Assembly: GCF_021922985.1 (NCBI RefSeq)
Contig: NZ_CP040788.1
Location: 1,798,001 to 1,862,000, forward strand
Reading direction: 5' to 3'
Source of the DNA: Clavibacter michiganensis subsp. tessellarius
Lineage (GTDB): Bacteria > Actinomycetota > Actinomycetes > Actinomycetales > Microbacteriaceae
Length of the DNA stretch: 64,000 bases
The notes under the pieces were generated by a model that saw only the letters and a program-made list of their open reading frames with translations, made no database searches and had not been told where the DNA came from. The translations under genes were made by a program, and so were the position numbers. Shown one piece after another: positions 34,673 through 48,864 of this stretch (position 1 is the stretch's first letter; the number at the start of each line of letters is the position of its first letter).

Positions 34673-37600
34673 CAATCCGCCCGGTGCGCGCCGGCCTGCA
34701 CCTGCACGGGCGCGGTGACCGGGTGCGCGTCCGAGATGGCGCCGAGGGCGGTGGCGATGCGGCGGGCGACGGCGTCCGGATCCGCGAACAGCTCGAAGGA
34801 GTGCACGCGCAGGTAGTGCCAGCCGAGGCGCTTGAGCATCTCGGGGCGCAGGCGCAGCGACTCGCGGAGGCTCGTCTGGTTGACGACCGGATCCGTCTCG
34901 ATCGCGATCGCCCGGCCGCCATAGGAGGCGACGAGGCCGAGCTTGTCGCGGTGGCCGAGGGCGGGCGCGAGGCCGAGGCCCTCGAGGCGGCGGGCGAGGT
35001 CGACGAGCATGGCGTCGCCGTCGTCCGGGATCGGGTCCTCGCGGAAGCGCGCCTCCGCCTCGGACAGGATCTGCGCGAGCGCGACGATGCCGTGCTTCAT
35101 CCGGTCCTGGTCGATGTCCGACGGCTGGAAGCAGGAGACGACCACCATCGAGCGGCGGGCGCGCGTCATGGCGACGGCGAGCAGCCGCTCCCCGCCGGGC
35201 GCCGCGAGCGAGCCGAAGTTCGACAACACGCGGCCGTGCGGGGTGCGGCCGTAGCCGACCGAGAAGATCACGCGGTCGCGGCTCTGCGCGACGCACTGCT
35301 CGAGGGTCGCGACCATGAACGGCTCGGCGCGGTCGCCGATGAAGAACTCGGTGACGTCGCTGCGCTTGGCCGCCGCGTGGAGCACGGCCTGCTGCACGCG
35401 CACGGCGTGCCGGGCGCTCGCGGTGATGACCATGAGGGACTCGCGCGGGCGGTGGCTCGCGTGGTCGAGCACCAGCTCCACGACGCGGATCACCTCGGCG
35501 TCGACGCTCTCGACCGCGCCGGTGTCCTCGTCGGGCATGCCGTGTCCGTCGGCGACGAAGTCGAGCGACAGGCTGCCGTGGCCGAGGAACGTGCCGGCCC
35601 ACGGGAGGGACTGGATGCGGCCGCCATAGAACCGGCGGTTGACGAGCTCGGCCAGGTCCTCGCCGCCGGCGCGGTAGCTGCGGGTGAGCGCGAGGGACGG
35701 CAGGAGCTCGCCGAGGCGCGCGAGGGCGGAGTCGGCGTGGCGCTCCTCGAGCGTCGAGTCGTCGTCCGCGAGCTGGGGCGTCGAGCGCTCCGGCTGCGGC
35801 ACGACCGCGATCGTGAAGGGCGACGGGGTCTGGGTGACGGGATCGCCGAAGACCACGGTCTGCTTGCCGCGCCGGATGCCGCCGAGGGCCTCCGCGAGCG
35901 TCATCGCGCCGGCGTCCACGAGGAACACGGCGTCGAACGGCATCTCGTCGGTGATCGCGGGCACCTCGTAGGGCGACGCGAGCCAGACCGGCGCGATGGT
36001 GCGGGAGAGGTGGGGCGCGGAGTGGTGGAGGGCCGCGGCGTCGACGGGGGCGGATCCGCCGAGCAGCTGACGCAGGTGGTGCGCCTCCTCGGGCCAGTCG
36101 ACCACGCCGATCTTCCACGTCTCCGCGAGCTGCCAGGCCAGGAGGCCCGCGCTCGCGGTCGCGTGCGCCTCGTCGACGAGGCGGAAGTCGGACTCGAGCC
36201 GGTCGAGCACGCTCGTGTTCGCGTTGAGGAGCGCCTTGTCGCCCGCGAGCATCTGCTCGAGCACGGACTGCCACCAGGCGAGCTCGAGCTCGGCGGCGAC
36301 GGCCTCCTGCGGCACGTGCCGGTCGGAGAGGTCGCGCAGCAGCGGGTCGAGGTCGAGGCGGCGGAGCTCGGCCAGCAGGGAGGTGCGCTCCTGCAGGTTC
36401 TGGAGCACCTCGCTGTCCTCGGCGAGCTGGGCGACCTTCTCGCGCAGCTCGTCGACGGGCAGCTCGGCGAGCGGGGTGGGGCGCGTGAGCATGCTCAGCG
36501 GCTCGTCGAGCACGCGGAGGTCGGCGGCGACCTCCTGGTAGCGGACGTGCACGTCGGAGATGCCGCGCGGGACCTCGGGGGTCGAGCCGACCGCGACGTA
36601 GCGCTGCCACAGGATCCGCTGCTTCTGGATGGCCTTGAGGCTCTCGTGCATGTCGGAGATGTGGACGCCTGGGCGCACGTACTCGCGGGCGAGCTTGCGG
36701 AGGCGACGGCGGGTGATGCTCGTCATCTCGGGGGCGTCGCGGCGGGATCCGGTGGCCGCGATGATCTCGCTGAGCGACCGGTCGAACACCACGGGCTGGA
36801 ACTTGTCGAGCGTCTCGCGCACGTCGAGCAGGAGGCGGAGGTACACGCCGAGCTCGTCGATGGAGCGGTAGGCGCGCATCCGAGTCTGGCCGATGAGCTC
36901 GTCGGCGCGCTCGAGGAGGCGCGGGAGGCCATCGGCGGAGAGGGACTTCGCGAGCTCGTGCGCGTGCGTCGCGGCGGCGCTCGTGGGGAAGGTCGCGCCG
37001 TACCAGGGCGAGTCGCCCGGGCCGTAGCGGAACTCGCCGAGGCTCGCGGCCTTGACGAGGGAGGCGGCGGCGCTCGCGCGGTCGTGCGCGATGGCCTTCA
37101 CGGCGTCGCGGGTGAGGCGCGCGGTGGTGGCCGGTGGGCTGGGGAGGAGCGCGAGGCGCGAGAGCTCGCCGAGCGCGTCGAGCACGGAGACGCCGAGGTC
37201 CGCGTCCGGGCGGCCGAGCGCGAAGCGGTAGTCGAGCAGCACGTGCCGCAGGCGCACGAGCGCGTCGTCGACCTCGGCGGTCTGCGCGGGCGCGGCCTTC
37301 TCGTTGCGGACGATGGACTGCACCACGTCGCGCTTCAGCGACTTCGGCGCGACCGCGAGGCCCGGCAGGCCCACGTCGGCGAGGCGCTGGCCGATGCCCT
37401 TGAGGGAGGAGGCGCGCGGGCTGACCACGAGCACGCGCTTGTTCTGCGCGACGAGGCAGCCGATGGAGTTGACGATGGTCTGCGTGCCGCCCGTGCCGGG
37501 CAGCGTCGTCACCACGAGCGAGTTGCCCGCGTTGATCTGCGCGATGACGTACTCCTGCTCCGGATCCGCGTCGAGCAGCAGCGTGTCGGTGACGGGCGGG

Positions 37601-38397
37601 CGCTGGTCCTGCGGGATCGGGTCGACCGGCGCGTAGGCCTCGCCCACTCCCCACTTGGCGGTGGGATTGCCGGCGATGGCGTCGATGACGAGGTGCTCGA
37701 GGTGCTCGGCGTCCTCGGCGAGCGACCGGCCCACCTCGGCGAAGGAGGAGACGACGAGGCGCGGCTGCACGGCGAACGCCGGCAGGTGCGACGTGAGGCC
37801 GCGCAGGCGGTCGATGACCGGCTGCGGCTTGAAGGCGCCGTTCTGCACGGCGAGCGCGACGAACGACTCGGCGTCGAGCGTGATCTGGAACTGCTCCTCG
37901 AGCGCCCGGGCGAGCGCCGGGTTGAGGAACGGCTGGCCCTTGAGGCGCACCTCGTAGTCGCTGCCGTGGCGGCGGATCGCGAGCGGGCGCAGCAGCACCG
38001 GCGCGCGGAACTGCTCGTCGGCGAAGCGCCACTCGGCGAGGCCGATGGCCAGGTGGATCGACTCGATGCCCCGGGCCGAGACCAGCTCGATGCCCTTCTG
38101 GGTGATCCGGTTGGCGGCCTTGCGGGCGCTGCGGAGCGCGAGCTCGTCGCGGATGAGGGACGACAGCAGCGTCGTCTTGCCCGTGATGAACTGCGCGAGC
38201 CCGCCCGGGTGCGTGGTGCTCAGCTCGATGCGGGAGCCCGGGTTGTCCACGAAGTGGAGGAGGGGCGAGGGCCCGCCGATGCCGGCCAGCTGCTCGCGCC
38301 ACTCGCGCCAGCGGGGCTCGGCCACGTTGCCGCTGCCCAGCTGCACGTCGCCGACGCGGAGGTCGTGGGGGCTGGTGCTGTTGTGGGAAGCATTCAC
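34672..38397 (-). CDS. SF1 helicase-like protein with degenerate Walker A and C-terminal Vsr/MTES-type nuclease domain
   Basis: About 1240 residues. The helicase core is recognisable, but the P-loop reads LPGTGGTQT where PGTGKTQT is expected. Codons GGC ACG GGC GGC ACG at about 37490 confirm Lys replaced by Gly. The Walker B region reads FLVDAGAM (Glu lost). The motif near GDPVTQ and the late motif VAMTRARRSMVVV (UvrD/Dna2-type VAxTRA) remain. The last 110 residues contain AIETDP, then LRPEMLKRLGWHYLRVHSFELF, the pattern of Vsr/MTES restriction-like nucleases attached to large helicases. GTG 38397 has an AGAGGA Shine-Dalgarno; a longer GTG start at 38478 adds an acidic stretch. Function is unknown; nucleic-acid processing or defence is possible. 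Confidence 0.8.
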   Translation of the reverse strand: MNASHNSTSPHDLRVGDVQLGSGNVAEPRWREWREQLAGIGGPSPLLHFVDNPGSRIELSTTHPGGLAQFITGKTTLLSSLIRDELALRSARKAANRITQKGIELVSARGIESIHLAIGLAEWRFADEQFRAPVLLRPLAIRRHGSDYEVRLKGQPFLNPALARALEEQFQITLDAESFVALAVQNGAFKPQPVIDRLRGLTSHLPAFAVQPRLVVSSFAEVGRSLAEDAEHLEHLVIDAIAGNPTAKWGVGEAYAPVDPIPQDQRPPVTDTLLLDADPEQEYVIAQINAGNSLVVTTLPGTGGTQTIVNSIGCLVAQNKRVLVVSPRASSLKGIGQRLADVGLPGLAVAPKSLKRDVVQSIVRNEKAAPAQTAEVDDALVRLRHVLLDYRFALGRPDADLGVSVLDALGELSRLALLPSPPATTARLTRDAVKAIAHDRASAAASLVKAASLGEFRYGPGDSPWYGATFPTSAAATHAHELAKSLSADGLPRLLERADELIGQTRMRAYRSIDELGVYLRLLLDVRETLDKFQPVVFDRSLSEIIAATGSRRDAPEMTSITRRRLRKLAREYVRPGVHISDMHESLKAIQKQRILWQRYVAVGSTPEVPRGISDVHVRYQEVAADLRVLDEPLSMLTRPTPLAELPVDELREKVAQLAEDSEVLQNLQERTSLLAELRRLDLDPLLRDLSDRHVPQEAVAAELELAWWQSVLEQMLAGDKALLNANTSVLDRLESDFRLVDEAHATASAGLLAWQLAETWKIGVVDWPEEAHHLRQLLGGSAPVDAAALHHSAPHLSRTIAPVWLASPYEVPAITDEMPFDAVFLVDAGAMTLAEALGGIRRGKQTVVFGDPVTQTPSPFTIAVVPQPERSTPQLADDDSTLEERHADSALARLGELLPSLALTRSYRAGGEDLAELVNRRFYGGRIQSLPWAGTFLGHGSLSLDFVADGHGMPDEDTGAVESVDAEVIRVVELVLDHASHRPRESLMVITASARHAVRVQQAVLHAAAKRSDVTEFFIGDRAEPFMVATLEQCVAQSRDRVIFSVGYGRTPHGRVLSNFGSLAAPGGERLLAVAMTRARRSMVVVSCFQPSDIDQDRMKHGIVALAQILSEAEARFREDPIPDDGDAMLVDLARRLEGLGLAPALGHRDKLGLVASYGGRAIAIETDPVVNQTSLRESLRLRPEMLKRLGWHYLRVHSFELFADPDAVARRIATALGAISDAHPVTAPVQVQAGAHRAD

Positions 38398-38655
38398 GTG
38401 GGGGTCCTCTAGAGGCTCGGCGGCGAACCCGGAGAGCAGGTCGTCGTCGTCGTCGGATCGTTCATTGGCACGCCACACCCGGCAACAGTACGACGCGGCA
38501 GGTGGGGAAACCGGCAGGCGACGCCGTGCGGGGGCGGATCCGGGAGCCGTGTCGGCTACTGGTTCGCGGGCGGGGCCGCGCCCGCCGGCCAGCCGGCCGC
38601 CCGACCCCGCGGGCCTCGGCCGGGCCGCCTCCCCTCCGCTACCATGGGCCCGTCA

Positions 38656-38727
38656 GCCTCTGTAGCTCAATGGAAGAGCAGTTCCGTCCTAAGGAAAGGG
38701 TTGGGGGTTCGAGTCCCTCCAGGGGCA
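38656..38727 (+). tRNA. tRNA-Arg (anticodon CCT)
   Basis: A 72-nt cloverleaf. The acceptor GCCTCTG pairs with CAGGGGC (one G-U). The D-arm is GCTCAATGGAAGAGC. The anticodon loop GTCCTAA has anticodon CCT, reading AGG, a rare codon here. The T-arm GGGGGTTCGAGTCCCTC is present. The first anticodon-stem pair is a G-A mismatch. CCA is not encoded. A TACCAT -10-like hexamer lies about 11 bases upstream. Confidence 0.93.
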
Positions 38728-38863
38728 CCTTCCGCTTCTCGCGTTCTCCCGTCGCGGACCTCTCGGCTCGGCCCGACCGCGTCGCCGATCCCCGCCGTGG
38801 AGAACGCCGGTGGCCGGCCGTCGGCTGCCGCTACTTTCAGCGCATGATCAGGTCAGCCGCCCC

Positions 38864-40870
38864 GTGCACCGCGTGACGAGGCGCCGACCGACCCGGGACA
38901 TTCCGGGGGCGCGCGGGCGCCGACGCCTCGCCGCCACCGTGCTGGGCATCGTCATCGCCCTCGCCCTCAGCGCCTGCGGCGCGGTGATCGACACCACGAT
39001 GACCGTGGACGGCGGCGGATCCGGCTCCCGCCAGATGACCGTCACGCTGAGCCAGCAGGACCTCGCCAAGGTCCCGGGCGGCCCGGCCGCCATCGACGCG
39101 TCCATCCGTCGGCACCTGCCGTCCCCGCTGGCGTACTCGGGCATCAGCGGCACGGCCGACGGCGGCGTCACCGCGACCTTCACGCTCGCGTTCTCCTCCC
39201 CCGCGGACTACTCGGGCGAGGTCGCCGCGCTCCTCTCCTCGCGCACGGGCTCGTCCGCGCCCCGGTTCGCGGTCACCGACTCCGCGCTCGTGCGGGGCAT
39301 CGACCTGCAGGAGTCGTTCACGAGCAGCGACCTGCTGGGGTGGATGTTCTCCGGCCTGATCGCGGACGGCGTCGTGGACGGCAGCGAGGGCGTCGGATCG
39401 CTGCGCGAGGAGGGCCGCGCGGCCGTCGTGTTCGCGGGACAGCGGCACACAGACGTCGGGGATCCGCTCTCCTACTCGCACGAGGAGAACCACGGCTTCG
39501 ACGGCGTCTCGATGGCGACCGACGCATCCGACCCGGGGCGCATCACGCGGACCATCACGTACCGCGCCGAGCAGGGACGGGACCAGGCCGACCTGGCGCG
39601 CCTCGACGCGTTCGTCCAGGGCGCCATGCCTGCGGGAGGCGAGGTCGCCGCGCCCGAGCCGGGCACGTGGACGACGGCCTTCACCGGCGACGCGGGGGCG
39701 ATCCAGGCGGACACCACGACCGCGCTCGGCGGCGGCGCCACGAGCTTCGCGGTCGACGTCTCCCCGCGGGCGGACGACCCGTCGCAGGAGGTCCTGCAGC
39801 TCACCGACACGGCATCGTGCGCGGCAGTGTGCGCCGTCGACGCCATCGGGCGCAGCGGGGTGCCCGATCACTTCACCGCAGGCGCCGGCTACTCCCCGGA
39901 GTCGATGGACGTGGGGTCGGCCGCCGCCGGCCCCGTGAGCTTCGTGCTCAGCCCGCCCGTCTCGTCGGTCGCGTCGCACCTCTCCATCGGCTCCGGCGGG
40001 GACGTCACCGGCACGACCACCATCGTCGTCCCGAGGTCCAGCGTCGACGCCGTCGGGGACGGATTCCTGCAGCGCTACCGGCCGGATCCGGACGTCGGCA
40101 CGATCGCCTCCGACGCGGGTCCGGACAGCACGACCTACACCGTGACCATCGCGGGCACGAGCGTCGAGGACTTCGCGGACCGCTACGCGAGGTGGGCCCC
40201 GGGAGCATCCGTCGGAGCGCGGGTGGTGGACGACGGGTTCCTCGTCCGGCGCTCGGAGTACGCGATCGACCCCGGCTTCGACGCCCTCGCGTCCGGGCAC
40301 CGCGTCCTCGACGGCACCGACGTGACGCTGGACCTCCCGCTCGGCTCCTGGGTCGACGGGGCGCAGGGCGGCTCGGGCGCAGACGGCGCCCGGATCACCG
40401 TCGTCCGAACGAGCAGCCTGACGCCGGCGGGCGTCGCCGCCGCGGCCGTCCTGGCACTCGGGCTCGCCGTCGGGCTCGTGCTCCTGCTCCGCCGTCGACG
40501 GGCGGTGGCGGCGCGGTTCGGGGCGGCACGGGCGCAACTGGACGCAGCGCTGGCCGCGCGACGCCGGACCCGGCTCGACGAGCGGCTCGCGATCGAGCCC
40601 GCCCTCGGCGCCGACGCGGAGGAGCGCGGCTCGCTGCTCGCGATCCCGGCACCGGCCCCGTCCACCATGGCCGGCGGTCGCACGGGTGCGCTCGACATGG
40701 ATCCGCCGCGCGATGTAGCCGGCGGACCGCCCCACCACGGGGCGCTGTCCATGACCCCGCCGCGCCGCAGCACGGGCACGCGACCGACCCTGCTCGGCGC
40801 CCGCCCCACCTCGGCCACGACGTCCAACACCGCACGCACCACCGACCGCACCGACCCCTGGGGAGCCTGA
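38864..40870 (+). CDS. Membrane-anchored lipoprotein of unknown function (LppM-like start)
   Basis: About 668 residues. A basic n-region and a hydrophobic core (ATVLGIVIALALSAC) with lipobox LSAC direct it outside. A large extracellular region follows with the repeated theme of TMTVDGGGSGSRQMTVTLSQ, which recalls LppM/DUF3153-type domains. A C-terminal membrane helix (AAAVLALGLAVGLVLLL) precedes a basic cytoplasmic tail of about 120 residues, so the protein is anchored twice. The start is uncertain: GTG 38864 or 38873 give a proper signal, while earlier starts overlap non-coding sequence. It is followed after 4 bp by the bPH-like membrane gene, suggesting one transcript. Confidence 0.75.
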   Translation: MHRVTRRRPTRDIPGARGRRRLAATVLGIVIALALSACGAVIDTTMTVDGGGSGSRQMTVTLSQQDLAKVPGGPAAIDASIRRHLPSPLAYSGISGTADGGVTATFTLAFSSPADYSGEVAALLSSRTGSSAPRFAVTDSALVRGIDLQESFTSSDLLGWMFSGLIADGVVDGSEGVGSLREEGRAAVVFAGQRHTDVGDPLSYSHEENHGFDGVSMATDASDPGRITRTITYRAEQGRDQADLARLDAFVQGAMPAGGEVAAPEPGTWTTAFTGDAGAIQADTTTALGGGATSFAVDVSPRADDPSQEVLQLTDTASCAAVCAVDAIGRSGVPDHFTAGAGYSPESMDVGSAAAGPVSFVLSPPVSSVASHLSIGSGGDVTGTTTIVVPRSSVDAVGDGFLQRYRPDPDVGTIASDAGPDSTTYTVTIAGTSVEDFADRYARWAPGASVGARVVDDGFLVRRSEYAIDPGFDALASGHRVLDGTDVTLDLPLGSWVDGAQGGSGADGARITVVRTSSLTPAGVAAAAVLALGLAVGLVLLLRRRRAVAARFGAARAQLDAALAARRRTRLDERLAIEPALGADAEERGSLLAIPAPAPSTMAGGRTGALDMDPPRDVAGGPPHHGALSMTPPRRSTGTRPTLLGARPTSATTSNTARTTDRTDPWGA

Positions 40871-40874
40871 CCGC

Positions 40875-41648
40875 ATGTTCGAACCGCAGATGGATGACGA
40901 CGCCGCGACGAAGCCGATCGTCGAGGACGCCGGCGGGGGCGGTGCCGTCACCCCCGCACCGACCTACCCCTTCCGCCTCCTGCCCGACGAGACCGTCCTC
41001 GGCACCTACCCCGTGGCGCGCCGCACCCGCCCCCTCGGCCGCCTGGTGAGCTACCTCTTCGTCACCGACTCCCGCGTCATCTACTCGGCCGAGGCGAAGA
41101 CGGTCTCGTCCTCGTCCACCTACTCGCGCGAGTACAAGATCGACAAGGTCGACGGCATCGAGGTGGGCCGCGACACCGGCTACGACGCGCTCGGCGTGGC
41201 GGCGCTCGCCGGCACCGCGATCAACTTCCTCTTCAGCCTCATCGCCTGGCTGGTGCTCGTGGGCGCCGACTCCTCCAACCTCGACGGCCTCGCGTGGCTG
41301 TTCGGCGTGGGCACCTTCTTCGCCCTCGTCCTCGGGGTGATCGGGTTCTTCGTGCTCCGCAGCAGGGCCGCGGTGCTCAGCGTGATCACCGGCAGCCAGC
41401 GGCAGGAGATCACCACGCGGCACGACGTGGCGAAGATCCTCTTCGTGCTCGTCCTCTTCGTCGCGCTGGGGGTCATCGCGCTCCTCGGCGCGGCGCTCTG
41501 GGTGCTGCTGCGGGAGCTGGGCATCGTCAGCGCATCGGACGCGGGCCTCTACATCCGCACGGACGACCTCGACCGCGTCTCGTTCGAGGCCGGCGCGCTG
41601 ATCCTCGACGCCCAGGCGCGCGGCAAGCTCGCGGGTACGTGGGACTGA
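40875..41648 (+). CDS. Membrane protein with bacterial-PH-like N-terminal domain
   Basis: A 257-residue protein. Residues 30-105 (LLPDETVLGTYPVARRT, then YLFVTDSRVIYSAEAKT, then YSREYKIDKVDGIEVG) have the pattern of a bacterial PH/bPH domain that folds on the membrane face. Three hydrophobic segments (about 113-135, 142-162 and 188-212) follow. A C-terminal PH-like strand pair (LYIRTDDLDRVSFEAGALI) closes it. No enzyme motif is present. It sits 4 bp after the lipoprotein gene and 42 bp before the first MHVV gene, so it may belong to the same operon. Confidence 0.75.
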   Translation: MFEPQMDDDAATKPIVEDAGGGGAVTPAPTYPFRLLPDETVLGTYPVARRTRPLGRLVSYLFVTDSRVIYSAEAKTVSSSSTYSREYKIDKVDGIEVGRDTGYDALGVAALAGTAINFLFSLIAWLVLVGADSSNLDGLAWLFGVGTFFALVLGVIGFFVLRSRAAVLSVITGSQRQEITTRHDVAKILFVLVLFVALGVIALLGAALWVLLRELGIVSASDAGLYIRTDDLDRVSFEAGALILDAQARGKLAGTWD

Positions 41649-41690
41649 CCGGCCGCACGATCACGGATCACGCAGCAGACAGGGAGACAC

Positions 41691-42284
41691 ATGCACGTCG
41701 TACAGCTGGGCCAGCTCCGGGACTCTGGACCGACGCCGGACATCACCATCCAGGACCCCGTGACGAACGAAGCCCGGAGCTACACCCTCACGCCGCGGCT
41801 CCTCGACCTGATCCGACGCGTCGACCCCGTCGCCGCCGACCAGCCCTTCACGGCGGATGAACGCCGGATCCTCCGCAACATGGCCGGGATCGGCGTCATC
41901 GCGCTCGTCCCCGATGACGCGCCGTTCGCACGCTTCGACTTCCTCCCCGTCACCCGGACCGACATCCTCTTCGACCAGGCGCTCGAGGAGGGGTACCGCC
42001 TCACCTCGGAGCAGGGGGGTCCGTTCGAGCTGAGCGAGTACGGCGCGAGGTTCCTGCACGAGGCCGACGGCCGGCGCACCCTCGGCGAGATCATGCGGAG
42101 CGTCCGGGACCGCGCGCTCGACGACGACGAGCGCCGGGAGATCGAGGAGGACGAGCGGCGCGGCATCCCGTTCGACGATCTGCTCCGGGATGAGGCCTTC
42201 CAGTTCGCGAAGGCCTGCGCCGCGAATCCCGCCCTCAGCCTCGAGCCGCGTCACACCCGCCCGGCGGACACGCTCCTCGCGTAG
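41691..42284 (+). CDS. MHVV-family PqqD-like protein, copy 1
   Basis: A 197-residue soluble protein, the first of five tandem paralogues. It starts MHVVQLGQL. An N-terminal module (residues 20-75) has IQDPVTNEARSYTLTPRLLDLI then FTADERRILRNMAGIGVIAL. A second module (about 95-140) has GYRLTSEQ then FELSEYGARFLHEADGRRTLGEI, closely like the PqqD signature in which a conserved Gly precedes the L-x-x-DG-x-x-T-x-x-EI helix. A helical C-terminal tail ends in NPALSLEP. PqqD-type domains are RiPP leader-recognition elements, but no radical-SAM or peptidase partner is adjacent. A CAGGGAG Shine-Dalgarno fixes the start. Function is unknown. Confidence 0.8.
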   Translation: MHVVQLGQLRDSGPTPDITIQDPVTNEARSYTLTPRLLDLIRRVDPVAADQPFTADERRILRNMAGIGVIALVPDDAPFARFDFLPVTRTDILFDQALEEGYRLTSEQGGPFELSEYGARFLHEADGRRTLGEIMRSVRDRALDDDERREIEEDERRGIPFDDLLRDEAFQFAKACAANPALSLEPRHTRPADTLLA

Positions 42285-42328
42285 GTCCCCTCGTCCGCAG
42301 CCCGCGATCCCCACGGAGGAACACCACC

Positions 42329-42988
42329 ATGCACGTCGTACCTCTTGGTCACGTCAGCGAGTCAGCAGGCGCCCCCACCGTCACCGTCCAGGATCCGCTC
42401 ACCGAGGAGGCGAGGAGCTACACGCTCAGCCCTCCTCTCGCGAATCTGATCCCGTCGCTCGACCCTCGGGAGACCAACAGGGCGTTCAGCGATGAGGAAT
42501 CCCGCCTGCTGGAGGGGATGGCCCGGCTGGGCGTCGTCGCCCTGGTCGATGACGACGCTCCGCTCACGGCTCTCCGCTTCATCCCCGTCACCCGCGCCGA
42601 CGTCAGGTTCGACGCGGCGCTAGACGATGGCTTCCGCTTCGACTCCGACCTCCATCGGCCGTTCGAGCTGAGCGAGTACGGGACGCGGCTGCTGGAGAAG
42701 GTCGACGGCCGCACAGACATGGGCGCGATCGCGGAAGCGGTTCGGCAGGAGGCGCTAACCGACGAGGGCGACCGGGCGGAGATCGAGGCGCACCAGCGCA
42801 CCCGTGGGCAGGACTTCGAGGCCTTCCTCGTCGCCGAGTCATATCGCTTCGTGGACGCCCTGCGCGGGAACCCGACGGTGACCTTCGAGCCGGCGCCCGC
42901 GGCGTCGGTCATCGGCGAGTCCCCCGCCAGCGCTCCTCCGGCGACAGCCATCACGACGACGGATAAGAGGGCGGCATGCACGTCATAG
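42329..42988 (+). CDS. MHVV-family PqqD-like protein, copy 2
   Basis: A 219-residue paralogue starting MHVVPLGHV, aligned with copy 1 over its whole length: VQDPLTEEARSYTLSP, FSDEESRLLEGMARLGVVAL, FIPVTRADVRFD and FELSEYGTRLLEKVDGRTDMGAI. After the shared end (NPTVTFEP) it has an extra Ala/Pro/Thr-rich tail of about 30 residues, the last five codons of which overlap the start of copy 3 in another frame. Codon choice (TCA, TAT, CTA present) is less GC-biased than that of neighbouring housekeeping genes. It follows copy 1 after 44 bp. Confidence 0.8.
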   Translation: MHVVPLGHVSESAGAPTVTVQDPLTEEARSYTLSPPLANLIPSLDPRETNRAFSDEESRLLEGMARLGVVALVDDDAPLTALRFIPVTRADVRFDAALDDGFRFDSDLHRPFELSEYGTRLLEKVDGRTDMGAIAEAVRQEALTDEGDRAEIEAHQRTRGQDFEAFLVAESYRFVDALRGNPTVTFEPAPAASVIGESPASAPPATAITTTDKRAACTS

Positions 42989-43626
42989 GTCTCGGATATC
43001 TGAGCGAGGTGGACGGCGAACCCAATGTCACCATCCAGGACCCGCGTACGGAGGAGAGGAAGGGATATCGGCTCGACCCGTCCATGTACGCGTTGCTGCA
43101 CGAGCTCGACCCGACAGAGACTGTCCACGACTTCACGCCGGAGGAATGGCGATGTCTCCGCGGCTTCGCGCGGCTCGGCATCGTGGCCATCACGAGCGAC
43201 CGCGACTCCGTCGACGAGCTGACGTTCATCCCGGTCCCGCGTGCCGACATCCGCTTCGTCGGGATGACCGATCGCGGCTATCAGCTGACGTCGATGCTCA
43301 GCCGGACATTCGAGCTGAGCGAGCACAGCACCCGCTTCCTCGGGATGGCCGACAGCAGGCGGAGTCTCGCGGAGATCGTCACGTCCGTCCAGCAGGAGGC
43401 CCTCGCGCGCGCGGAGGAGCAGCCCGCCATCGAGGAGATCGAACGGGAGTCGGGCGCGTCCTTCGGCGAGTTCCTCGAAGCCGAGGCGTACCGGTTCATC
43501 CGAGCACTCCGCGGGAACCAGGCCGTCTCGTTCGAACCGCACGCGATCCCCCTGGCCGTGGATGAGCCGATCGCGGGTCAGGCGGAGCCCAGCAGACTCC
43601 CTCCGACGGGCGAGTCCGGCGAGTGA
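42976..43626 (+). CDS. MHVV-family PqqD-like protein, copy 3 (diverged)
   Basis: A 216-residue paralogue starting MHVIGLGYL. The N-terminal module is preserved (IQDPRTEERKGYRLDP and FTPEEWRCLRGFARLGIVAI, then FIPVPRADIRF). The PqqD-like signature is altered: FELSEHSTRFLGMADSRRSLAEI loses both glycines (YG to HS, DG to DS). This copy may therefore have a changed or lost binding function. The tail after NQAVSFEP is about 30 residues and Pro/Glu-rich. An AAGAGGG Shine-Dalgarno lies within the end of copy 2, and the overlap with copy 2 is 13 bp. Confidence 0.8.
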   Translation: MHVIGLGYLSEVDGEPNVTIQDPRTEERKGYRLDPSMYALLHELDPTETVHDFTPEEWRCLRGFARLGIVAITSDRDSVDELTFIPVPRADIRFVGMTDRGYQLTSMLSRTFELSEHSTRFLGMADSRRSLAEIVTSVQQEALARAEEQPAIEEIERESGASFGEFLEAEAYRFIRALRGNQAVSFEPHAIPLAVDEPIAGQAEPSRLPPTGESGE

Positions 43627-43672
43627 GCGCGCAGGACGCCTCACCCACAGCACCCTCGAGAGGATGAATGAC

Positions 43673-44251
43673 ATGCACGTCGTGCAACTCGGTCACATCG
43701 CTGAGATCGACGGCCGCCACAACATGGCCGTCCAGGATCCCCTCACGCGCAAGTCTGCGAGCTACGACCTCACCCCGGAGGCGCTCGAGCTCCTCCTCTC
43801 CCTCGACCCCACCGAGACCGGCCGCGTCTTCACCCCGGAAGAGCATCGCCTCCTCGAGATCTGCGCCGCGCTCCGAATGGTCGCGCTCGTCGAGGATGGG
43901 GCGCCTCTGTCCGAGCTGTCGTTCATCCCGGCCCCTCGGTACGACGTGATCCTCGACGCCATCCTCGATGACGGCTACCGCTTTACCTCGGAGGTGGACG
44001 ACCCCTTCGAGCTCAGCGAGTACGGGGGACGATTCCTGCTCCGGGTCGACGGCGAACGCACCCTCGGGGAGATCGCTCTCGCAGTGAAGGAGGACGCGCT
44101 CGCGAACGAGGAGGACCGCGCCGCGATCCGCGTCGGCGAGGTGGAGCTGCAGCAGACGTTCGACGAGTACATCGAGGCCGAGGTCTTCCGCTTCGTCGCC
44201 GCCCTGCGCGGGCGGGAAGCGATCACGTTCGAGGCGACTGCCGGGGCATGA
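43673..44251 (+). CDS. MHVV-family PqqD-like protein, copy 4
   Basis: A 192-residue paralogue starting MHVVQLGHI, with VQDPLTRKSASYDLTP, FTPEEHRLLEICAALRMVAL, FIPAPRYDVILD and an intact PqqD-like signature FELSEYGGRFLLRVDGERTLGEI. The start at 43673 was chosen because it gives the family N-terminus with GAGAGG nine bases upstream, although an in-frame ATG exists three codons earlier. It lacks the tail seen in copies 2 and 3. Its stop overlaps the next gene's ATG within ATGA, so it is translationally coupled to the anchor protein. Confidence 0.8.
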   Translation: MHVVQLGHIAEIDGRHNMAVQDPLTRKSASYDLTPEALELLLSLDPTETGRVFTPEEHRLLEICAALRMVALVEDGAPLSELSFIPAPRYDVILDAILDDGYRFTSEVDDPFELSEYGGRFLLRVDGERTLGEIALAVKEDALANEEDRAAIRVGEVELQQTFDEYIEAEVFRFVAALRGREAITFEATAGA

Positions 44252-44907
44252 GAGGCAGGACGTTCATCGGCGGGGGCCTCCTGGGAGGAACCGTCGTCAT
44301 CGCGTCGCTAGGTGGGGCACCGCACCTTGCGGACTCCGACCCCGAGGCACTCCTCGACGGCATCGAGGCGGTCGCCGTGACACCCACCGAGAGGAGAGAG
44401 GAGCTGCAAGCGCGCCTCGACGAGGCGAGCATCTCGTCTGACGACGAGACTCCATCGCTCCGGGACGACCTCCCGGAGCCCGACGCCGTGGAGACGAGCG
44501 GCACGACGTTGGTCGACGTCGATCCCGTCGACTCCGAGCCGGGAGCCAGCGAGGGTGCGCCGGCGCCGGCCGATGGATCCGCGGATCCGGCGACCGGAGC
44601 GGAGCCCGAGCCCGAGCCCGAGCCCGAGGATGCAGGTTCCGCGCTCCCCCAGGGAGCCGACGCGCCCCAGGGCGGCGCGGAGGAGACGGTGACGGATGCG
44701 ACCGCGAGCGGCCCGCCTGTCGGACCGGACCGCGCTGCCGCGGAACTCGACGCCTCGGGCGACCACGAAGCAGCGGAAGAGGCAGCGCCCGATGCAGGCG
44801 GAGAGCAGCACCTGGATGCTGCTGCGCCCGAGCCCTCGACGCCATCGGAGGCCTCCGCGGAGACCGGTCCGGACCCCGACATCCACGACCCCGAACCGGA
44901 GTGGTGA
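44248..44907 (+). CDS. Small membrane-anchored or secreted acidic protein, copy 1
   Basis: A 219-residue protein. The first 25 residues (RGRTFIGGGLLGGTVVIASLGG) are a basic n-region plus a glycine-rich hydrophobic segment, either a signal peptide or an N-terminal anchor. A conserved block follows, DPEALLDGIEAVAVTPTERREELQ, shared with the 46914 gene, then LRDDLPEP. The remaining 140 residues are low-complexity and strongly acidic (PEPEPEPE and Ala/Asp/Gly runs), ending DPEPEW. No known domain. It is coupled upstream to MHVV copy 4 (ATGA) and downstream to the VirD4-like ATPase (TGATG), so the three products are probably made together. Confidence 0.75.
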   Translation: MRGRTFIGGGLLGGTVVIASLGGAPHLADSDPEALLDGIEAVAVTPTERREELQARLDEASISSDDETPSLRDDLPEPDAVETSGTTLVDVDPVDSEPGASEGAPAPADGSADPATGAEPEPEPEPEDAGSALPQGADAPQGGAEETVTDATASGPPVGPDRAAAELDASGDHEAAEEAAPDAGGEQHLDAAAPEPSTPSEASAETGPDPDIHDPEPEW

Positions 44908-46220
44908 TGCCCTACTCGGAGGAGGTCGTCAGCGGCACCGCGCTGCGGGACTGCGCGGGGCACCTCGGTCCGCGGCCGGCGGAGTTCGGCGTGCACGGCG
45001 TCGCCGGTACGAGCATCGGGTTCGACGACGCGATGCTCGGCCGCCACGTGCTCTACCTCGGCGGCATCGGCACGGGCAAGACCGTCGGCATCTCCGCGCT
45101 CGTCGCCTCGGTGCGCGCGAGCATGACCGCCGACGACGTGATGGTCGTGTTCGACACCAAGGGCGACTACCACGAGACGTTCCACCGGCCGGGCGACGCG
45201 GTGCTCGCCGCGACGCTCGCCGACGAGTTCGCGGGGCAGGTCTCCTGGAACCTGTTCGAGGAATTCCGCGCGCTGCCCCCGGGCCGCCTGCCCGAGGACG
45301 AGATCTTCGAGATGTGCAGCGGCCTGTTCTCCCGCCTCATCGCCGACGCCGGCGACAACGCCTACTTCGCCCGCGCCGCGCGCGACGTGTTCACCGCCCT
45401 CGTCACCGCGATGTACCGGGAATCCGAGGAGCGGTCGAACCGCGACATCCGCATGATCGTCGGCGGCATGGGCATCGGCGAGATGCACGCGCTGCTGGAC
45501 CGACCGGGGAACGCCGACCTGCGCGGCGCCCGCCACTACATCGCCAAGGAGGGGTCGAACTCGACCATGGCGACGATGGCGTTCACGCAGCAGGTGATCC
45601 AGGAGTCGTTCCGCTCCTCGTTCGGGCGCCCGGGGGACTTCTCCATCCGCGCCTTCCTCCGCGCGAAGGGCGCGCGGGCGCTCTTCCTCGAGTACGACAT
45701 CGCCTCCGGCAGCACGCTCGCGCCGGTCTTCACGGCCATGCTCGACGTCGCGATGAAGGAGGCCATGTCCCGTCGCCGCGCGGCCGGGCGCGTCTTCTTC
45801 GTGCTCGACGAGTTCGCGCTCCTGCCCGAGCTCACGCACCTCTCCGACGGCGTGAACTTCGGCCGCTCGCTCGGGCTGCGGTTCATCGTCGGCACGCAGA
45901 ACGTCAAGCAGGTGCAGGAGATGTACGGGCCCGAGATGGCCGCGTCCGTGCTGTCGGCGTTCGGATCCGTGTTCGCGTTCCGCCTCTACGACGGGGACTC
46001 CCGCCGCTTCGTGGGCGACCGGTTCGGCGCGAACCGCAAGCTGACGCGGTTCGACTCCTCCGTGCGCGGCTCCGGCCTCCGCGAGGAGGTCATCACGGGC
46101 GCGGTGGTCGAGGATTGGGACCTCTCGAGCCTCGGCGTCGGGACCTGCATCGCGGCGCTGCCCGACGGCCCGCCGGTGCGGTTCACGTTCGCGGCGCCGG
46201 CGGTGTCGCCGTCGCGGTAG
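44907..46220 (+). CDS. VirD4/TraD-like ATPase without membrane domain
   Basis: A 437-residue P-loop ATPase. Walker A GGIGTGKTV is at residues 52-60, VVFDTKGDYHETF near 80-92 (the DxKGD strand of TraD/TrwB) and Walker B FFVLDEFALLPEL near 297-309. Next comes GRSLGLRFIVGTQNVKQVQEMYG, the TraG/TraD sensor region with the terminal Gln. It lacks the N-terminal transmembrane helices of conjugative coupling proteins and the plasmid-transfer genes that usually accompany them. Its role is probably to move or remodel a protein or DNA substrate; in this locus the MHVV and anchor proteins are the likely partners (inference). The ATG overlaps the anchor stop by one base. Confidence 0.85.
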   Translation: MPYSEEVVSGTALRDCAGHLGPRPAEFGVHGVAGTSIGFDDAMLGRHVLYLGGIGTGKTVGISALVASVRASMTADDVMVVFDTKGDYHETFHRPGDAVLAATLADEFAGQVSWNLFEEFRALPPGRLPEDEIFEMCSGLFSRLIADAGDNAYFARAARDVFTALVTAMYRESEERSNRDIRMIVGGMGIGEMHALLDRPGNADLRGARHYIAKEGSNSTMATMAFTQQVIQESFRSSFGRPGDFSIRAFLRAKGARALFLEYDIASGSTLAPVFTAMLDVAMKEAMSRRRAAGRVFFVLDEFALLPELTHLSDGVNFGRSLGLRFIVGTQNVKQVQEMYGPEMAASVLSAFGSVFAFRLYDGDSRRFVGDRFGANRKLTRFDSSVRGSGLREEVITGAVVEDWDLSSLGVGTCIAALPDGPPVRFTFAAPAVSPSR

Positions 46221-46338
46221 GACCACGACGCAGGGCTCCGGCGCGTCGCCCGCGCCGTCGCTACCATCGCCGGACGGGGTGCGCGCCTGAGCACGAGCGA
46301 CGCATCGAAGCCGTCCATCGACAGGAAGAAGAGGACCC

Positions 46339-46917
46339 ATGCACGTCGTCCCGCTCGGGTACATCGGCGAGTTCGAGGGCAAGCCGAACCTCGCGCTGCT
46401 GGATCCCCTCACGACGGAGACCAGGAACCACACGCTCGCGCCGGAGACGGCCCGGTTGCTGCGGTCGATCGACCCGACCCTGTCCGACCAGGATCTCGAC
46501 GAGCAGGAGCGCCGTCTCCTCGTGGGATACGCGACGCTCGGCATCGTCGCCCTGATCGGCGACGACGCACCCCTCTCGGCCCTGGACGTCATACCCGTGC
46601 CCCGCGTGGACATCATCCTCGAGGAGGTGATCGACGACGGATACCGCTTCAGCTCGGGATCCGACGAGCCGTTCGAGCTGACCGAGTACGGCGCCCGGTT
46701 CCTCACCAAGGCCGACGGCCGACGCACGCTCGGGGAGATCGTCGAGGCGACGCGCGACGAGGCCCTCGCGGACGACGCCGACCGTGCCGCGATCGAGGAG
46801 GGCGTGACGCGCACCGGGCAGTCGTTCGACCGCTTCCTGATGGACGAGGCGTACCGCCTCATCTCCGCCCTCCAGGGTCGCGTCGCCGTGACGTTCGAGG
46901 CGACCGGGCGACCGTGA
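46339..46917 (+). CDS. MHVV-family PqqD-like protein, copy 5
   Basis: A 192-residue paralogue starting MHVVPLGYI, with LLDPLTTETRNHTLAP, LDEQERRLLVGYATLGIVAL, VIPVPRVDIILE and signature FELTEYGARFLTKADGRRTLGEI. It ends VAVTFEATGRP, almost the same as copy 4, and like copy 4 it is coupled by a 4-bp overlap (GTGA) to an anchor gene. Copies 4 and 5 with their anchors therefore look like a duplicated two-gene unit, with the ATPase between them. An AAGAGG Shine-Dalgarno precedes it in a 118-bp gap that may hold its own promoter. Confidence 0.8.
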   Translation: MHVVPLGYIGEFEGKPNLALLDPLTTETRNHTLAPETARLLRSIDPTLSDQDLDEQERRLLVGYATLGIVALIGDDAPLSALDVIPVPRVDIILEEVIDDGYRFSSGSDEPFELTEYGARFLTKADGRRTLGEIVEATRDEALADDADRAAIEEGVTRTGQSFDRFLMDEAYRLISALQGRVAVTFEATGRP

Positions 46918-47390
46918 AGGGGCACCGGGTACTGGGCGGCGTCCTGGTCGGAGGAGTCGCCTTCATCGGCGCCGCGGGCATGCCCCCTCAGGTCGACGGC
47001 CCGGATCCGAACGCGCTGCTGGACAGCGTCGAGGCAGCAGCGGTGACACCCGGCGAGAGACGTGAGGAGCAGGAGGAGCGGATCCGAGCCGCGCACGATT
47101 CCTCCCGGAGCGACGCGCCCGCCCTCCGAGACGACCTGCCTCATCCGCACGATCTCCCCGTGGTCGGAACGAGATCCCTTCCCGTGGCGTCCGCCGGCGA
47201 GCGCGAGGGACGCCCCGGAGGATCAGCCGAAGACGCTGACCCCGCGACGGCGAGCGCCGGGGCGCCTCCCGCTCCGCGGACACGCCCCAGCGGATCCCCG
47301 GCGGCGATCGTCCGACGTCCGACGCCCGCCGCGGGACGGCTCGGGAGGGGCGTCGGTCGACGTGATCCGCCCGGAGGACGCGGACGGTGA
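46914..47390 (+). CDS. Small membrane-anchored or secreted protein, copy 2 (C-terminus possibly frame-shifted)
   Basis: A 158-residue paralogue of the 44248 product. The first 80 residues align: a basic start (KGHRVLGGVLVGGVAFIG), then DPNALLDSVEAAAVTPGERREEQ and LRDDLPHP. Beyond about residue 135 the product becomes Arg/Gly/Pro-rich with many A/T third positions (CGA, CGT, GGA), unlike real genes here. The +1 frame over the same bases regains high third-position GC and an acidic peptide (SVDVIRPEDADGD). This suggests a recent frameshift or sequence error near 47310-47340. Confidence 0.6.
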   Translation: MKGHRVLGGVLVGGVAFIGAAGMPPQVDGPDPNALLDSVEAAAVTPGERREEQEERIRAAHDSSRSDAPALRDDLPHPHDLPVVGTRSLPVASAGEREGRPGGSAEDADPATASAGAPPAPRTRPSGSPAAIVRRPTPAAGRLGRGVGRRDPPGGRGR

Positions 47391-47401
47391 CCGGGCAGGG
47401 T

Positions 47402-47431
47402 GGACGGGCCCGCAGCGCGCGCAGCCCGTCC
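47402..47431. terminator. Weak inverted repeat between convergent genes
   Basis: GGACGGGC and GCCCGTCC form an 8-bp stem with a 14-base loop, between the stop of the 46914 gene and the stop of the convergent 47452 gene. Confidence 0.3.
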
Positions 47432-47451
47432 GTCCCGCTCGGCGCCTCGGG

Positions 47452-48564
47452 CTACGTGCCGACCGACTCCCCCGCGTGCACCCGGATCGCCTCCCGGATC
47501 GCATCCGCGTGCGCGTAGATCTCGTCGAGCGATCCGATGGGGTGGCGCGTCTCGACCTTGTGCGCGTCGAAGAGGCCGAGGTACTTCTGCTTCTTGCCGT
47601 TGAAGTGCAGGCGCGCGATGGGCTTGCGGTTGTTGTCGTCGAGGAGGATCGCCAGGTAAGACTTCGCGTCGCGGTGCACCACGCGCTGCGGCTTCACCTC
47701 GCTGCAGGCGATGGCCTTGACGATCTGGTAGCCCTCGAGCTCCTCGAGCGTCGTCTCGATCTCCGTGTCGCGGTCGAGGTCCGCCTCCACGACCTCCTCG
47801 CTGGTGATCACGTCGGCTGATGCGGCGGTCGGCGCCGAGGGGAACGCGGGAGCCCCGAGCGCGGTCTTGAGCCGGTCGTTCACCTGCTCGTTCAGGTACT
47901 GCTTCGACGCCTTGCCCACGAGCGTCGTGAACTGCTCACGCACCTTCTCGGTGAACATGCCGTCGTACACGCGACGGGTGAGGAGCTTCACCCAATCCGT
48001 GGTCGGCTCGCGGAACTCGGCGGCGATCGCGCGCTTCAGCGCACCGACGTACTTGAGCTCGCCGGCGGCGCTGATGATCGAGTCGAGGTCGAACACGTCC
48101 TTCGTGAGCTTCATCAGCTCGGGCAGGAGGGTCTCGTCGATGTCGGCGAGGTCGAGCACGAGGAACGGCTTCTCGTCCATGCGGTTCGGCGCGTCGAGGT
48201 CCGTGTAGAAGTGGTACGTCTCGCCGTTCGTCAGCACCGCGATGCGCGCGTTCGTCACCGCGAAGTAGCGGAACAGCTGCGACGCGTGCTCGATCTTGAG
48301 CGGCTCCGTCGACTTCTTGCACTCGATGAGGATCTGCACCTCGCCGTCGCGCATGATCGCGTAGTCGATCTTCTCGCCCTTCTTGAGGCCGAGGTCCGCC
48401 GTGAACTCGGGGACCACCTCGAGCGGGTTGAACACGTCGTATCCGAGGATCGTGGAGATGAACGGCATGATGAACGCGTTCTTCGTCGCCTCCTCCGTCT
48501 GGATGGCCTCGCGCTGGTTGCGCACCTTCAGGGCCAGGGCGGCCAGTCGTTCGGCGAATTCCAT
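47452..48564 (-). CDS. Orphan type I restriction HsdR N-terminal-domain protein
   Basis: A 370-residue protein. Residues 20-160 match the HSDR_N PD-(D/E)xK nuclease fold: NAFIMPFISTILGYDVFNPLEVVPEF, then EKIDYAIM (Asp) and ILIECKKS (Glu-x-Lys), so the catalytic residues are intact. The C-terminal part (about 280-370) contains RLHFNGKKQKYLGLFD, a short beta domain found in stand-alone members. There is no helicase, HsdM or HsdS nearby, so it is not a restriction system by itself. It may be a nuclease or a domesticated nucleic-acid-binding protein. The ATG has a GGGAG Shine-Dalgarno. It is convergent with the MHVV cluster. Confidence 0.85.
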   Translation of the reverse strand: MEFAERLAALALKVRNQREAIQTEEATKNAFIMPFISTILGYDVFNPLEVVPEFTADLGLKKGEKIDYAIMRDGEVQILIECKKSTEPLKIEHASQLFRYFAVTNARIAVLTNGETYHFYTDLDAPNRMDEKPFLVLDLADIDETLLPELMKLTKDVFDLDSIISAAGELKYVGALKRAIAAEFREPTTDWVKLLTRRVYDGMFTEKVREQFTTLVGKASKQYLNEQVNDRLKTALGAPAFPSAPTAASADVITSEEVVEADLDRDTEIETTLEELEGYQIVKAIACSEVKPQRVVHRDAKSYLAILLDDNNRKPIARLHFNGKKQKYLGLFDAHKVETRHPIGSLDEIYAHADAIREAIRVHAGESVGT

Positions 48565-48864
48565 GGGGACTCCCTCGTCTCGGTGATCCCGACGATACGG
48601 AGGTCCATGCGCGTTCATGGAAGGGCGGGTGCCCCCATTTCGGGATATATGCCCTCCGAGCCACATCGGCCGGATGCTCGCGCACCCGGTCCGGTGGACA
48701 ACCGGATCGACCCCCGTCCCCCTCCGCGCACACTGGGGCGGTCCCGAGCGCGCCGCGACGATGCGCCCCACGGATCGCCTCGACGGCGCGGCTCGGGGCA
48801 GCAGCCATCGGCTCGGCGGGCGTCGCCGGGCAGGCCCGCACCGCCGATCCGAGGAGCCCCGCCC
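48565..48864. other. Intergenic region between divergent HsdR-N and LLM genes
   Basis: Three hundred bases carrying both promoters. I see GC-rich sequence with an AT-richer patch at 48640-48650 (GGGATATATGCC), no tRNA and no convincing ORF. Short open frames here lack Shine-Dalgarno sequences. Confidence 0.5.

What the first reader, a model, noticed from the sequence alone, without database searches (positions are those of the whole stretch)
41691..47390. Candidate undescribed system: five tandem PqqD-like 'MHVV' paralogues, two anchor proteins and a soluble VirD4-like ATPase
Seen: five proteins of 192-219 aa all begin MHV[VI]xLG and share the pattern DP.T...Y.L.P, then a ...LGIVAL block, then FxPVxRxD, then FEL[ST]E...RFL..x(D)...EI. 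Copies 4 and 5 are coupled by 4-bp overlaps to a small anchor-protein family (shared DPxALLDxxEAxAVTPxERREE), and the first anchor gene is coupled by TGATG to a TraD/VirD4-type ATPase lacking membrane helices. Known: PqqD-type domains bind RiPP leader peptides, and TraD-type ATPases move DNA or proteins. Inference: the paralogues form a multi-subunit recognition set, the anchors give a membrane dock, and the ATPase drives movement or remodelling. No radical-SAM, protease or conjugation genes are adjacent, so it fits no standard class I know.
Basis: partly seen in the sequence, partly recalled or inferred. Interest (0 to 1): 0.85.

Follow-up and report, generated by a model that had tools for sequence, protein, structure and literature searches.

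The report
Membrane motor island with adaptor proteins
A swappable ten-gene block in a plant-associated bacterium encodes a motor protein related to DNA-transfer pumps, probable membrane partners, and five sister proteins built from peptide-binding-type folds; close relatives of the motor keep the same membrane partners, but nobody knows yet what it moves.

Summary
Five paralogues (192-219 aa), two small proteins with a hydrophobic N-terminus and a TrwB-like ATPase without predicted membrane helices lie in one tightly packed block of a Clavibacter chromosome. AlphaFold2 models copy 5 (pLDDT 93.8) as two tandem winged-helix domains; its PDB matches include PqqD and several RiPP-recognition (RRE) enzymes. 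The PqqD idea is thus supported by fold, only weakly by sequence. The ten-gene island (about 38744-47441) fills a slot beside a tRNA-Arg; four of four island-less Clavibacter slots fetched hold a nucleotidyltransferase-HEPN pair instead. Lipoprotein, membrane protein and ATPase recur together in Cryobacterium, Marisediminicola and two Curtobacterium megaplasmids; a Paenibacillus plasmid keeps membrane protein plus ATPase. Usually an acidic, disordered-looking protein with a tryptophan-bearing end (DPEPEW-like) is encoded nearby. MHVV proteins were found only in Clavibacter and metagenomes. Best reading: a membrane-tethered coupling-protein-type ATPase fed by lineage-specific adaptors. What it moves is not shown; an anti-phage role is a serious rival.

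The parts
38656..38729 (+). tRNA-Arg (CCT), left border of the variable slot
   Evidence: ARAGORN; Rfam; left-flank homology in 11 of 11 island-less Clavibacter searched ends within 14 bases of its 3' end
38744..47441 (.). island present in 5 of 18 Clavibacter genomes, replaced in others
   Evidence: blastn boundaries 38738-38743 on the left in 4 of 4 loci, 47442 on the right in 3 of 4 (L068-L070), 48677 in L071; presence
38861..40870 (+). predicted lipoprotein (LSAC lipobox, by eye) with C-terminal hydrophobic helix; start could be upstream
   Evidence: homologue near the ATPase in 4 of 4 other Microbacteriaceae loci
40875..41648 (+). membrane protein with hydrophobic helices and a conserved GALI.D.Q..G end; PH-like only by pattern (recalled), fold not established
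   Evidence: low-confidence model
41691..42284 (+). MHVV copy 1 (two RRE-like domains by homology)
42329..42988 (+). MHVV copy 2
42976..43626 (+). MHVV copy 3
43673..44251 (+). MHVV copy 4
44248..44907 (+). anchor 1 / tail protein: hydrophobic 6-24, acidic Pro-rich linker, C-terminal DPEPEW
44901..46220 (+). soluble TrwB/VirD4-like ATPase (Walker A GIGTGKT, Walker B FFVLDE)
46339..46917 (+). MHVV copy 5 (modelled: two tandem RRE-like winged helices, about 1-78 and 83-190)
46914..47390 (+). anchor 2: N-terminal part like anchor 1, basic ...GRGR end

Best explanation
A ten-gene island encodes a membrane-associated complex driven by a coupling-protein-type (TrwB/VirD4) ATPase that lacks its own membrane domain. 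SHOWN: gene content, predicted fold of one small protein, the recurring set of partners, the island's borders. INFERRED: the integral membrane protein and the lipoprotein hold the ATPase at the membrane. The tail protein, usually encoded next to the ATPase, contacts it through its acidic, W-bearing C-terminus, much as the acidic C-terminal extensions of DotL or TraD work, but in trans. The MHVV proteins use their two RRE-like domains as adaptors that capture peptide segments (perhaps first the conserved DPxALLDxxEAxAVTPxERREE stretch of the co-translated anchors, or substrate proteins) and hand them to the motor for unfolding or translocation. The six MHVV subfamilies would give different specificities on one motor.
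For: TrwB_AAD_bind E 6e-42 and TrwB as the only relative found in PDB. Invariant Walker A/B residues in 10 aligned ATPases from Actinomycetota and Paenibacillus. No hydrophobic helix in the ATPase, membrane partners encoded alongside. Lipoprotein + membrane protein + ATPase together in 9 of 9 Microbacteriaceae loci compared (5 Clavibacter, 4 others), membrane protein + ATPase in the Paenibacillus locus. Among 72,556 plasmid records the lipoprotein is found in 2, the same 2 that carry an ATPase of 60-80% identity. Copy 5 fold: two RRE-like domains, pLDDT 93.8. W-bearing acidic end: once in each of 8 of 10 loci scanned. Anchor-type genes in the five Clavibacter loci directly follow a copy of the c4, c5 or c6 type, or c2 in L038. 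A coupling-protein class lacking the membrane domain and pairing with small membrane proteins is described in PMC7434980 (passages), which also tells of DotL's acidic tail receiving effectors from IcmSW.
Confidence: 0.45

Rival explanations
1. Anti-phage (or anti-plasmid) defence system: the ATPase is a DNA- or protein-remodelling motor at the membrane, the RRE-like proteins are sensors, and the island is a defence cassette in a hotspot. This concerns purpose and could be true together with the best explanation.
For: The slot holds an HTH/nucleotidyltransferase + HepT-like HEPN pair in 4 of 4 island-less Clavibacter loci fetched, in lower-identity or split matches in L071; the left neighbour matches PADLOC PDC-S37/Hhe, the right neighbour is HSDR_N; in the Marisediminicola locus L034 an ApeA-type HEPN gene, an nSTAND gene and a DruE-like gene follow the cassette; patchy distribution (5 of 18 Clavibacter; 3 of 398 family genomes counting the window's own); best PADLOC match of the ATPase is mad8, E 5e-15.
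Against: No nuclease, toxin or effector domain matched in the ten island proteins by Pfam or NCBIfam, nor in the 5 scanned with PADLOC, where only the ATPase matched; the Cryobacterium copy lies between flagellin-like and fliD-like genes and the Curtobacterium copies on megaplasmids; the left neighbour's start region is there also in island-less genomes, so it is not tied to the island.
Confidence: 0.3
2. Conjugation accessory: the ATPase is the coupling protein of a mobile element or resident plasmid and serves a type IV secretion system encoded elsewhere.
For: TrwB family; homologues on Curtobacterium and Paenibacillus megaplasmids; a VirB4-like AAA_10 protein exists on contig C3 of the same genome and 63-66 kb from the cassette on the two Curtobacterium plasmids; a distant homologue (31%) on a Haloarcula plasmid follows a gene annotated as relaxase; the Cryobacterium genome holds a TrwC relaxase (distance to the cassette not determined).
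Against: No relaxase or channel gene among the ten island proteins; no TrwC-type relaxase in G000, G123 or the 4 plasmid records searched (other relaxase families not searched); both Curtobacterium plasmids and the Paenibacillus plasmid are typed non-mobilizable; identity to the annotated plasmid TraD proteins listed is only 23-26%.
Confidence: 0.12
3. RiPP-type pathway: the anchors are precursor peptides and the MHVV proteins their RRE carriers, with the ATPase exporting the product.
For: RRE-like double domains; anchors are small and translationally coupled to a copy of the MHVV family; they differ in their C-terminal parts.
Against: No radical SAM, YcaO, LanB, protease or ABC transporter family matched among the ten island proteins; the tail or repeat proteins elsewhere are 440-620 aa; the ATPase is the gene under the strongest constraint (dN/dS 0.08-0.09).
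Confidence: 0.07

Closest known systems
Type IV coupling proteins lacking a transmembrane domain (TraJ/TraI of pIP501), TraG-TraJ pairs
   Same: TrwB-type motor without membrane helices, membrane partner encoded beside it (class described in PMC7434980, passages read)
   Different: no relaxase or secretion channel in the island; the partners here are a lipoprotein, a membrane protein, a W-tailed acidic protein and RRE-pair proteins; relation to the pIP501 proteins not tested
Dot/Icm coupling complex (DotL with IcmSW)
   Same: coupling ATPase with an acidic C-terminal tail and small adaptor proteins that bring substrates (PMC7434980, passages; PMC7280309 and PMC7251119, search listing with abstract start only)
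   Different: here the acidic tail is a separate protein and the adaptors are RRE-like folds; no sequence relation tested
PqqD / RiPP recognition elements
   Same: winged-helix fold with matches to TbiB1-leader complexes, PqqD, ThcOx, TruD
   Different: two such domains in one free-standing protein, six subfamilies, no RiPP enzyme in the island, Pfam cut-off missed by all five copies here
MADS defence system, Mad8
   Same: weak similarity of the ATPase (PADLOC E 5e-15)
   Different: no other MADS model matched among the 5 island proteins scanned; no paper describing MADS in depth came up in the library

Membership tests
Type IV coupling proteins (VirD4/TrwB) | nucleotide-binding domain with Walker A and B | tested here: met
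   Pfam PF10412 6e-42, PF02534, PF12696; invariant motifs in alignment A8 of 10 sequences
Type IV coupling proteins (VirD4/TrwB) | N-terminal transmembrane domain (most subfamilies) | tested here: not met
   no hydrophobic segment; a subfamily without it is known (PMC7434980)
Type IV coupling proteins (VirD4/TrwB) | works with a relaxase and type IV channel | tested here: inconclusive
   none in the island; AAA_10 match only on contig C3; TrwC relaxase not found in G000; other relaxases not searched
PqqD / RRE | score above Pfam PF05402 cut-off | tested here: not met
   best of the five copies 17.9 bits against 23.4; orthologue-like P0134 of C. sepedonicus carries a precomputed PF05402 hit and the name PqqD family protein
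PqqD / RRE | winged-helix fold of the RRE type | tested here: met
PqqD / RRE | binds a peptide by strand addition | not testable with these tools
   needs a binding assay or complex structure
PqqD / RRE | encoded with RiPP enzymes | tested here: not met
   none of the ten island proteins matches such a family in Pfam or NCBIfam, apart from the weak PqqD hits of the copies themselves
MADS defence system | full set of Mad proteins | tested here: not met
   only the ATPase matches (mad8) among 5 of the 10 island proteins, those scanned with PADLOC

The most novel reading that the evidence does not exclude
A previously undescribed envelope machine, found in Actinomycetota and in a related form in Bacillota, in which a coupling-protein ATPase works without a type IV channel. 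Its membrane dock and its acidic substrate-receiving tail are split off as separate proteins, and RRE domains, so far known to me from peptide-natural-product enzymes, serve as exchangeable substrate adaptors; it is traded as a cassette at a defence-type hotspot.
Probability: 0.3. Interest if true: 0.85.

Novelty: new variant of a known kind. Interest (0 to 1): 0.6.

Why it matters
It would be a stand-alone use of the conjugation motor family with defined membrane, tail and adaptor parts, and would extend RRE domains from RiPP biosynthesis to feeding an ATPase. The recurring gene set and the clean slot borders give a testable minimal unit. The mad8 similarity and the hotspot location make a phage test worthwhile.

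Tried and rejected
Profile-profile comparison of MHVV with the small proteins beside the Curtobacterium and Paenibacillus ATPases: no signal (those two alignments have only 2 sequences each, so the test is weak). Pfam on those four small proteins: nothing relevant. Profile search of MHVV against sequences of solved structures: nothing below E 0.9. NCBIfam on the copies: one weak PqqD hit for copy 4 (E 0.001, no single stretch passing) and one chance-like hit for copy 3. Membrane protein fold: AlphaFold2 from 4 sequences gave pLDDT 51.5, so no fold is claimed; hmmsearch against PDB gave nothing meaningful. ATPase in phage records: no match; in PHROGs two weak motor-domain hits; in IMG/VR none by the pattern scan. 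MHVV in plasmids: no match. ATPase in 227 genomes of one other genus: none, which the tool says shows nothing by itself. Large genome searches scored only a few candidates per genome, so low counts are lower bounds. Lipoprotein as a marker of the system: rejected, since relatives at about 30% identity occur without a match to ATPase or membrane protein in 4 of 4 loci fetched (L051-L054). Integration by a repeat of the tRNA end: words of 9-14 bases shared by the two borders were sought and none printed; no integrase among the ten proteins. Paper searches that gave no description of such a system: (held open-access library only); the one paper with both PqqD and VirD4 is a Streptococcus suis genome report (listing only). 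A Clavibacter comparative-genome paper (PMC4059874, passages) has TraG once, in a plasmid context, and no VirD4.

Rows dropped: structure alignment A6 left out P0005, P0127 and P0139; the tree left out copies broken in relatives. Island-less genomes G002 and G009 were not given to the flank search (11 of 13 were); the downstream side was fetched for 4 of those 11. The second tail pattern (acidic stretch ending in WA or WG) was written after seeing the Curtobacterium ends.
Full report
WHERE IT IS. The window is a stretch of a Clavibacter chromosome: the closest named proteins are Clavibacter, and it is G000 contig C1 1798001-1862000. All genes of the finding are on the + strand. They form a tightly packed series from 38861 to 47390 with gaps of at most 118 bases or short overlaps. 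The consensus scan gave no promoter-like site, and its three terminator-like hits (two of them overlapping) lie inside genes.

OBSERVATION. The five paralogues, two anchors and ATPase are as described, with the exceptions to the patterns given in the observation check. Orthologue comparison shows purifying selection on all ten genes, weakest on the lipoprotein (dN/dS 0.47-0.56). Orthologues of each copy in other Clavibacter species group together (c1-c5 and a sixth, c6, present in two genomes), so the duplications predate these species and the copies have stayed distinct. The copies beside anchors in most loci (c4, c5, c6) form one group (97/96), which suggests that a copy-anchor pair was duplicated as a unit.

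THE ATPASE. TrwB_AAD_bind (6e-42) is the best family. TrwB is the only PDB relative found at E<=0.01 (E 2e-17). There are no hydrophobic helices. Walker A, Walker B and a C-terminal EDWD...L..G motif are invariant in ten sequences from Actinomycetota to Paenibacillus. In 5.8 billion clustered proteins there are 627 relatives at E<=0.001, only the 7997 best candidates having been scored; named near ones are Microbacteriaceae, with Propionibacteriales MAGs at 48-49%. In whole genomes it is rare: 4 of 17 other Clavibacter and none of the other 42 genomes in the same call; 3 of 398 family genomes and 2 of 396 phylum genomes, the window's own counted each time.

THE UNIT IS LARGER THAN REPORTED. 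Two genes directly upstream belong to it: a 669-aa lipoprotein with a C-terminal hydrophobic helix, and a 257-aa membrane protein. In the Paenibacillus amylolyticus plasmid (L040) a membrane protein matches (E 9e-5, 28% identity) with the same C-terminal GALI.D.Q..G motif. There the ATPase is followed by two genes of 198 and 184 aa and then an acidic repeat protein of 620 aa. The lipoprotein family also exists without the system (L051-L054). A more distant locus of the same phylum (L055, ATPase 32%) has no match to lipoprotein or membrane protein; vWA-, phosphatase- and kinase-like genes lie upstream (domains read by eye).

THE TAIL PROTEIN. Anchor 1 ends in DPEPEW. The same place before the ATPase in other genera holds frames of 440-584 aa (counted stop to stop) with Glu/Gln-Pro or Thr/Gln-Pro repeats, ending DNDPEMDW, DNDPEPDW, EEGQSWGGGWA or EEGQNWGGGWG. 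Scanning 1819 open frames in ten loci, such an end occurs once in each of eight loci and not in L037 or L040. In L038 the tail protein sits behind copy 2 instead of copy 4, yet keeps ...LADPEPEW. In L036 a transposase-like frame separates the N-terminal and the W-tailed piece. Anchor 2 lacks this end and has a basic one. The N-terminal segment of the Clavibacter anchors may be a membrane anchor or a signal peptide; this was not decided.

THE SLOT. The left flank matches in 11 of 11 island-less Clavibacter genomes searched, ending within 14 bases of the 3' end of tRNA-Arg. In four of these, fetched further, the right side resumes at 47442 (L068, L069, L070) or at 48677 (L071). In L068 the slot holds an HTH + nucleotidyltransferase gene and a HepT-like gene; tblastn finds both in L069 and L070 at 88-95% identity and in L071 in lower-identity or split matches. 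The ten genes are thus present or absent as one block, which is independent evidence that lipoprotein, membrane protein, MHVV copies, anchors and ATPase belong together.

MECHANISM. Known coupling proteins without membrane domain work with small membrane proteins, and acidic C-terminal regions of coupling proteins receive substrates or adaptors (PMC7434980, passages; PMC7431656, passages, on domain roles). By analogy I infer a split coupling complex: motor, separate membrane dock, separate acidic tail, and RRE-like adaptors. Every binding step is inference. The defence reading rests on location and a weak mad8 similarity and concerns purpose more than mechanics.

NOVELTY. The motor family and the domain fold are known; the combination is not described in the searches made (open-access library only). 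I therefore call it a new variant of a known kind, with a substantial chance that it is a distinct system.

Noticed in passing
window 34675-38478 (-): 1268-aa DUF4011-type helicase with weak MTES_1575 nuclease match, PADLOC PDC-S37/Hhe; its start region lies left of the slot also in island-less Clavibacter.
   Followed up: partly
window 47452-48624 (-): 390-aa HSDR_N protein right of the slot; no methylase or specificity partner seen next to it in the ORF list, not searched further.
   Followed up: partly
L068 1086-1879: HTH-nucleotidyltransferase plus HepT-like HEPN pair occupying the island's slot; a Schlafen-group helicase gene follows at 3400-5193 beyond the HSDR_N gene.
   Followed up: partly
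L034 11103-18993: ApeA-type HEPN protein, nSTAND NTPase (below cut-off) and DruE-like protein follow the Marisediminicola cassette.
   Followed up: partly
L035, L036, L037 (relatives): Copy 1 (L035, L036), copy 5 (L036) and anchor 2 (L037) are split in tblastn, as if broken in frame, while the ATPase is open in all four relatives; single copies may be dispensable or switched.
   Followed up: no
L036 8811-9770 (-): Transposase-like gene inside the anchor 1 gene of one Clavibacter relative.
   Followed up: no
L036 3566-4482 and L038 4297-5213 (-): A sixth MHVV copy with its own anchor-like gene lies beyond the HSDR_N gene in two Clavibacter genomes.
   Followed up: partly
L055 5163-12517: vWA-, phosphatase- and kinase-like genes (by eye), then a 32% identical ATPase and a second gene that looks like a coupling-type ATPase.
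   Followed up: no
L040 18209-21314: AAA ATPase followed by an HNH-like protein, resembling a Septu-type pair (by eye), two genes after the Paenibacillus repeat protein.
   Followed up: no
L029 41-11514: The Cryobacterium cassette lies between two flagellin-like genes and fliD/fliS-like genes (by eye).
   Followed up: no
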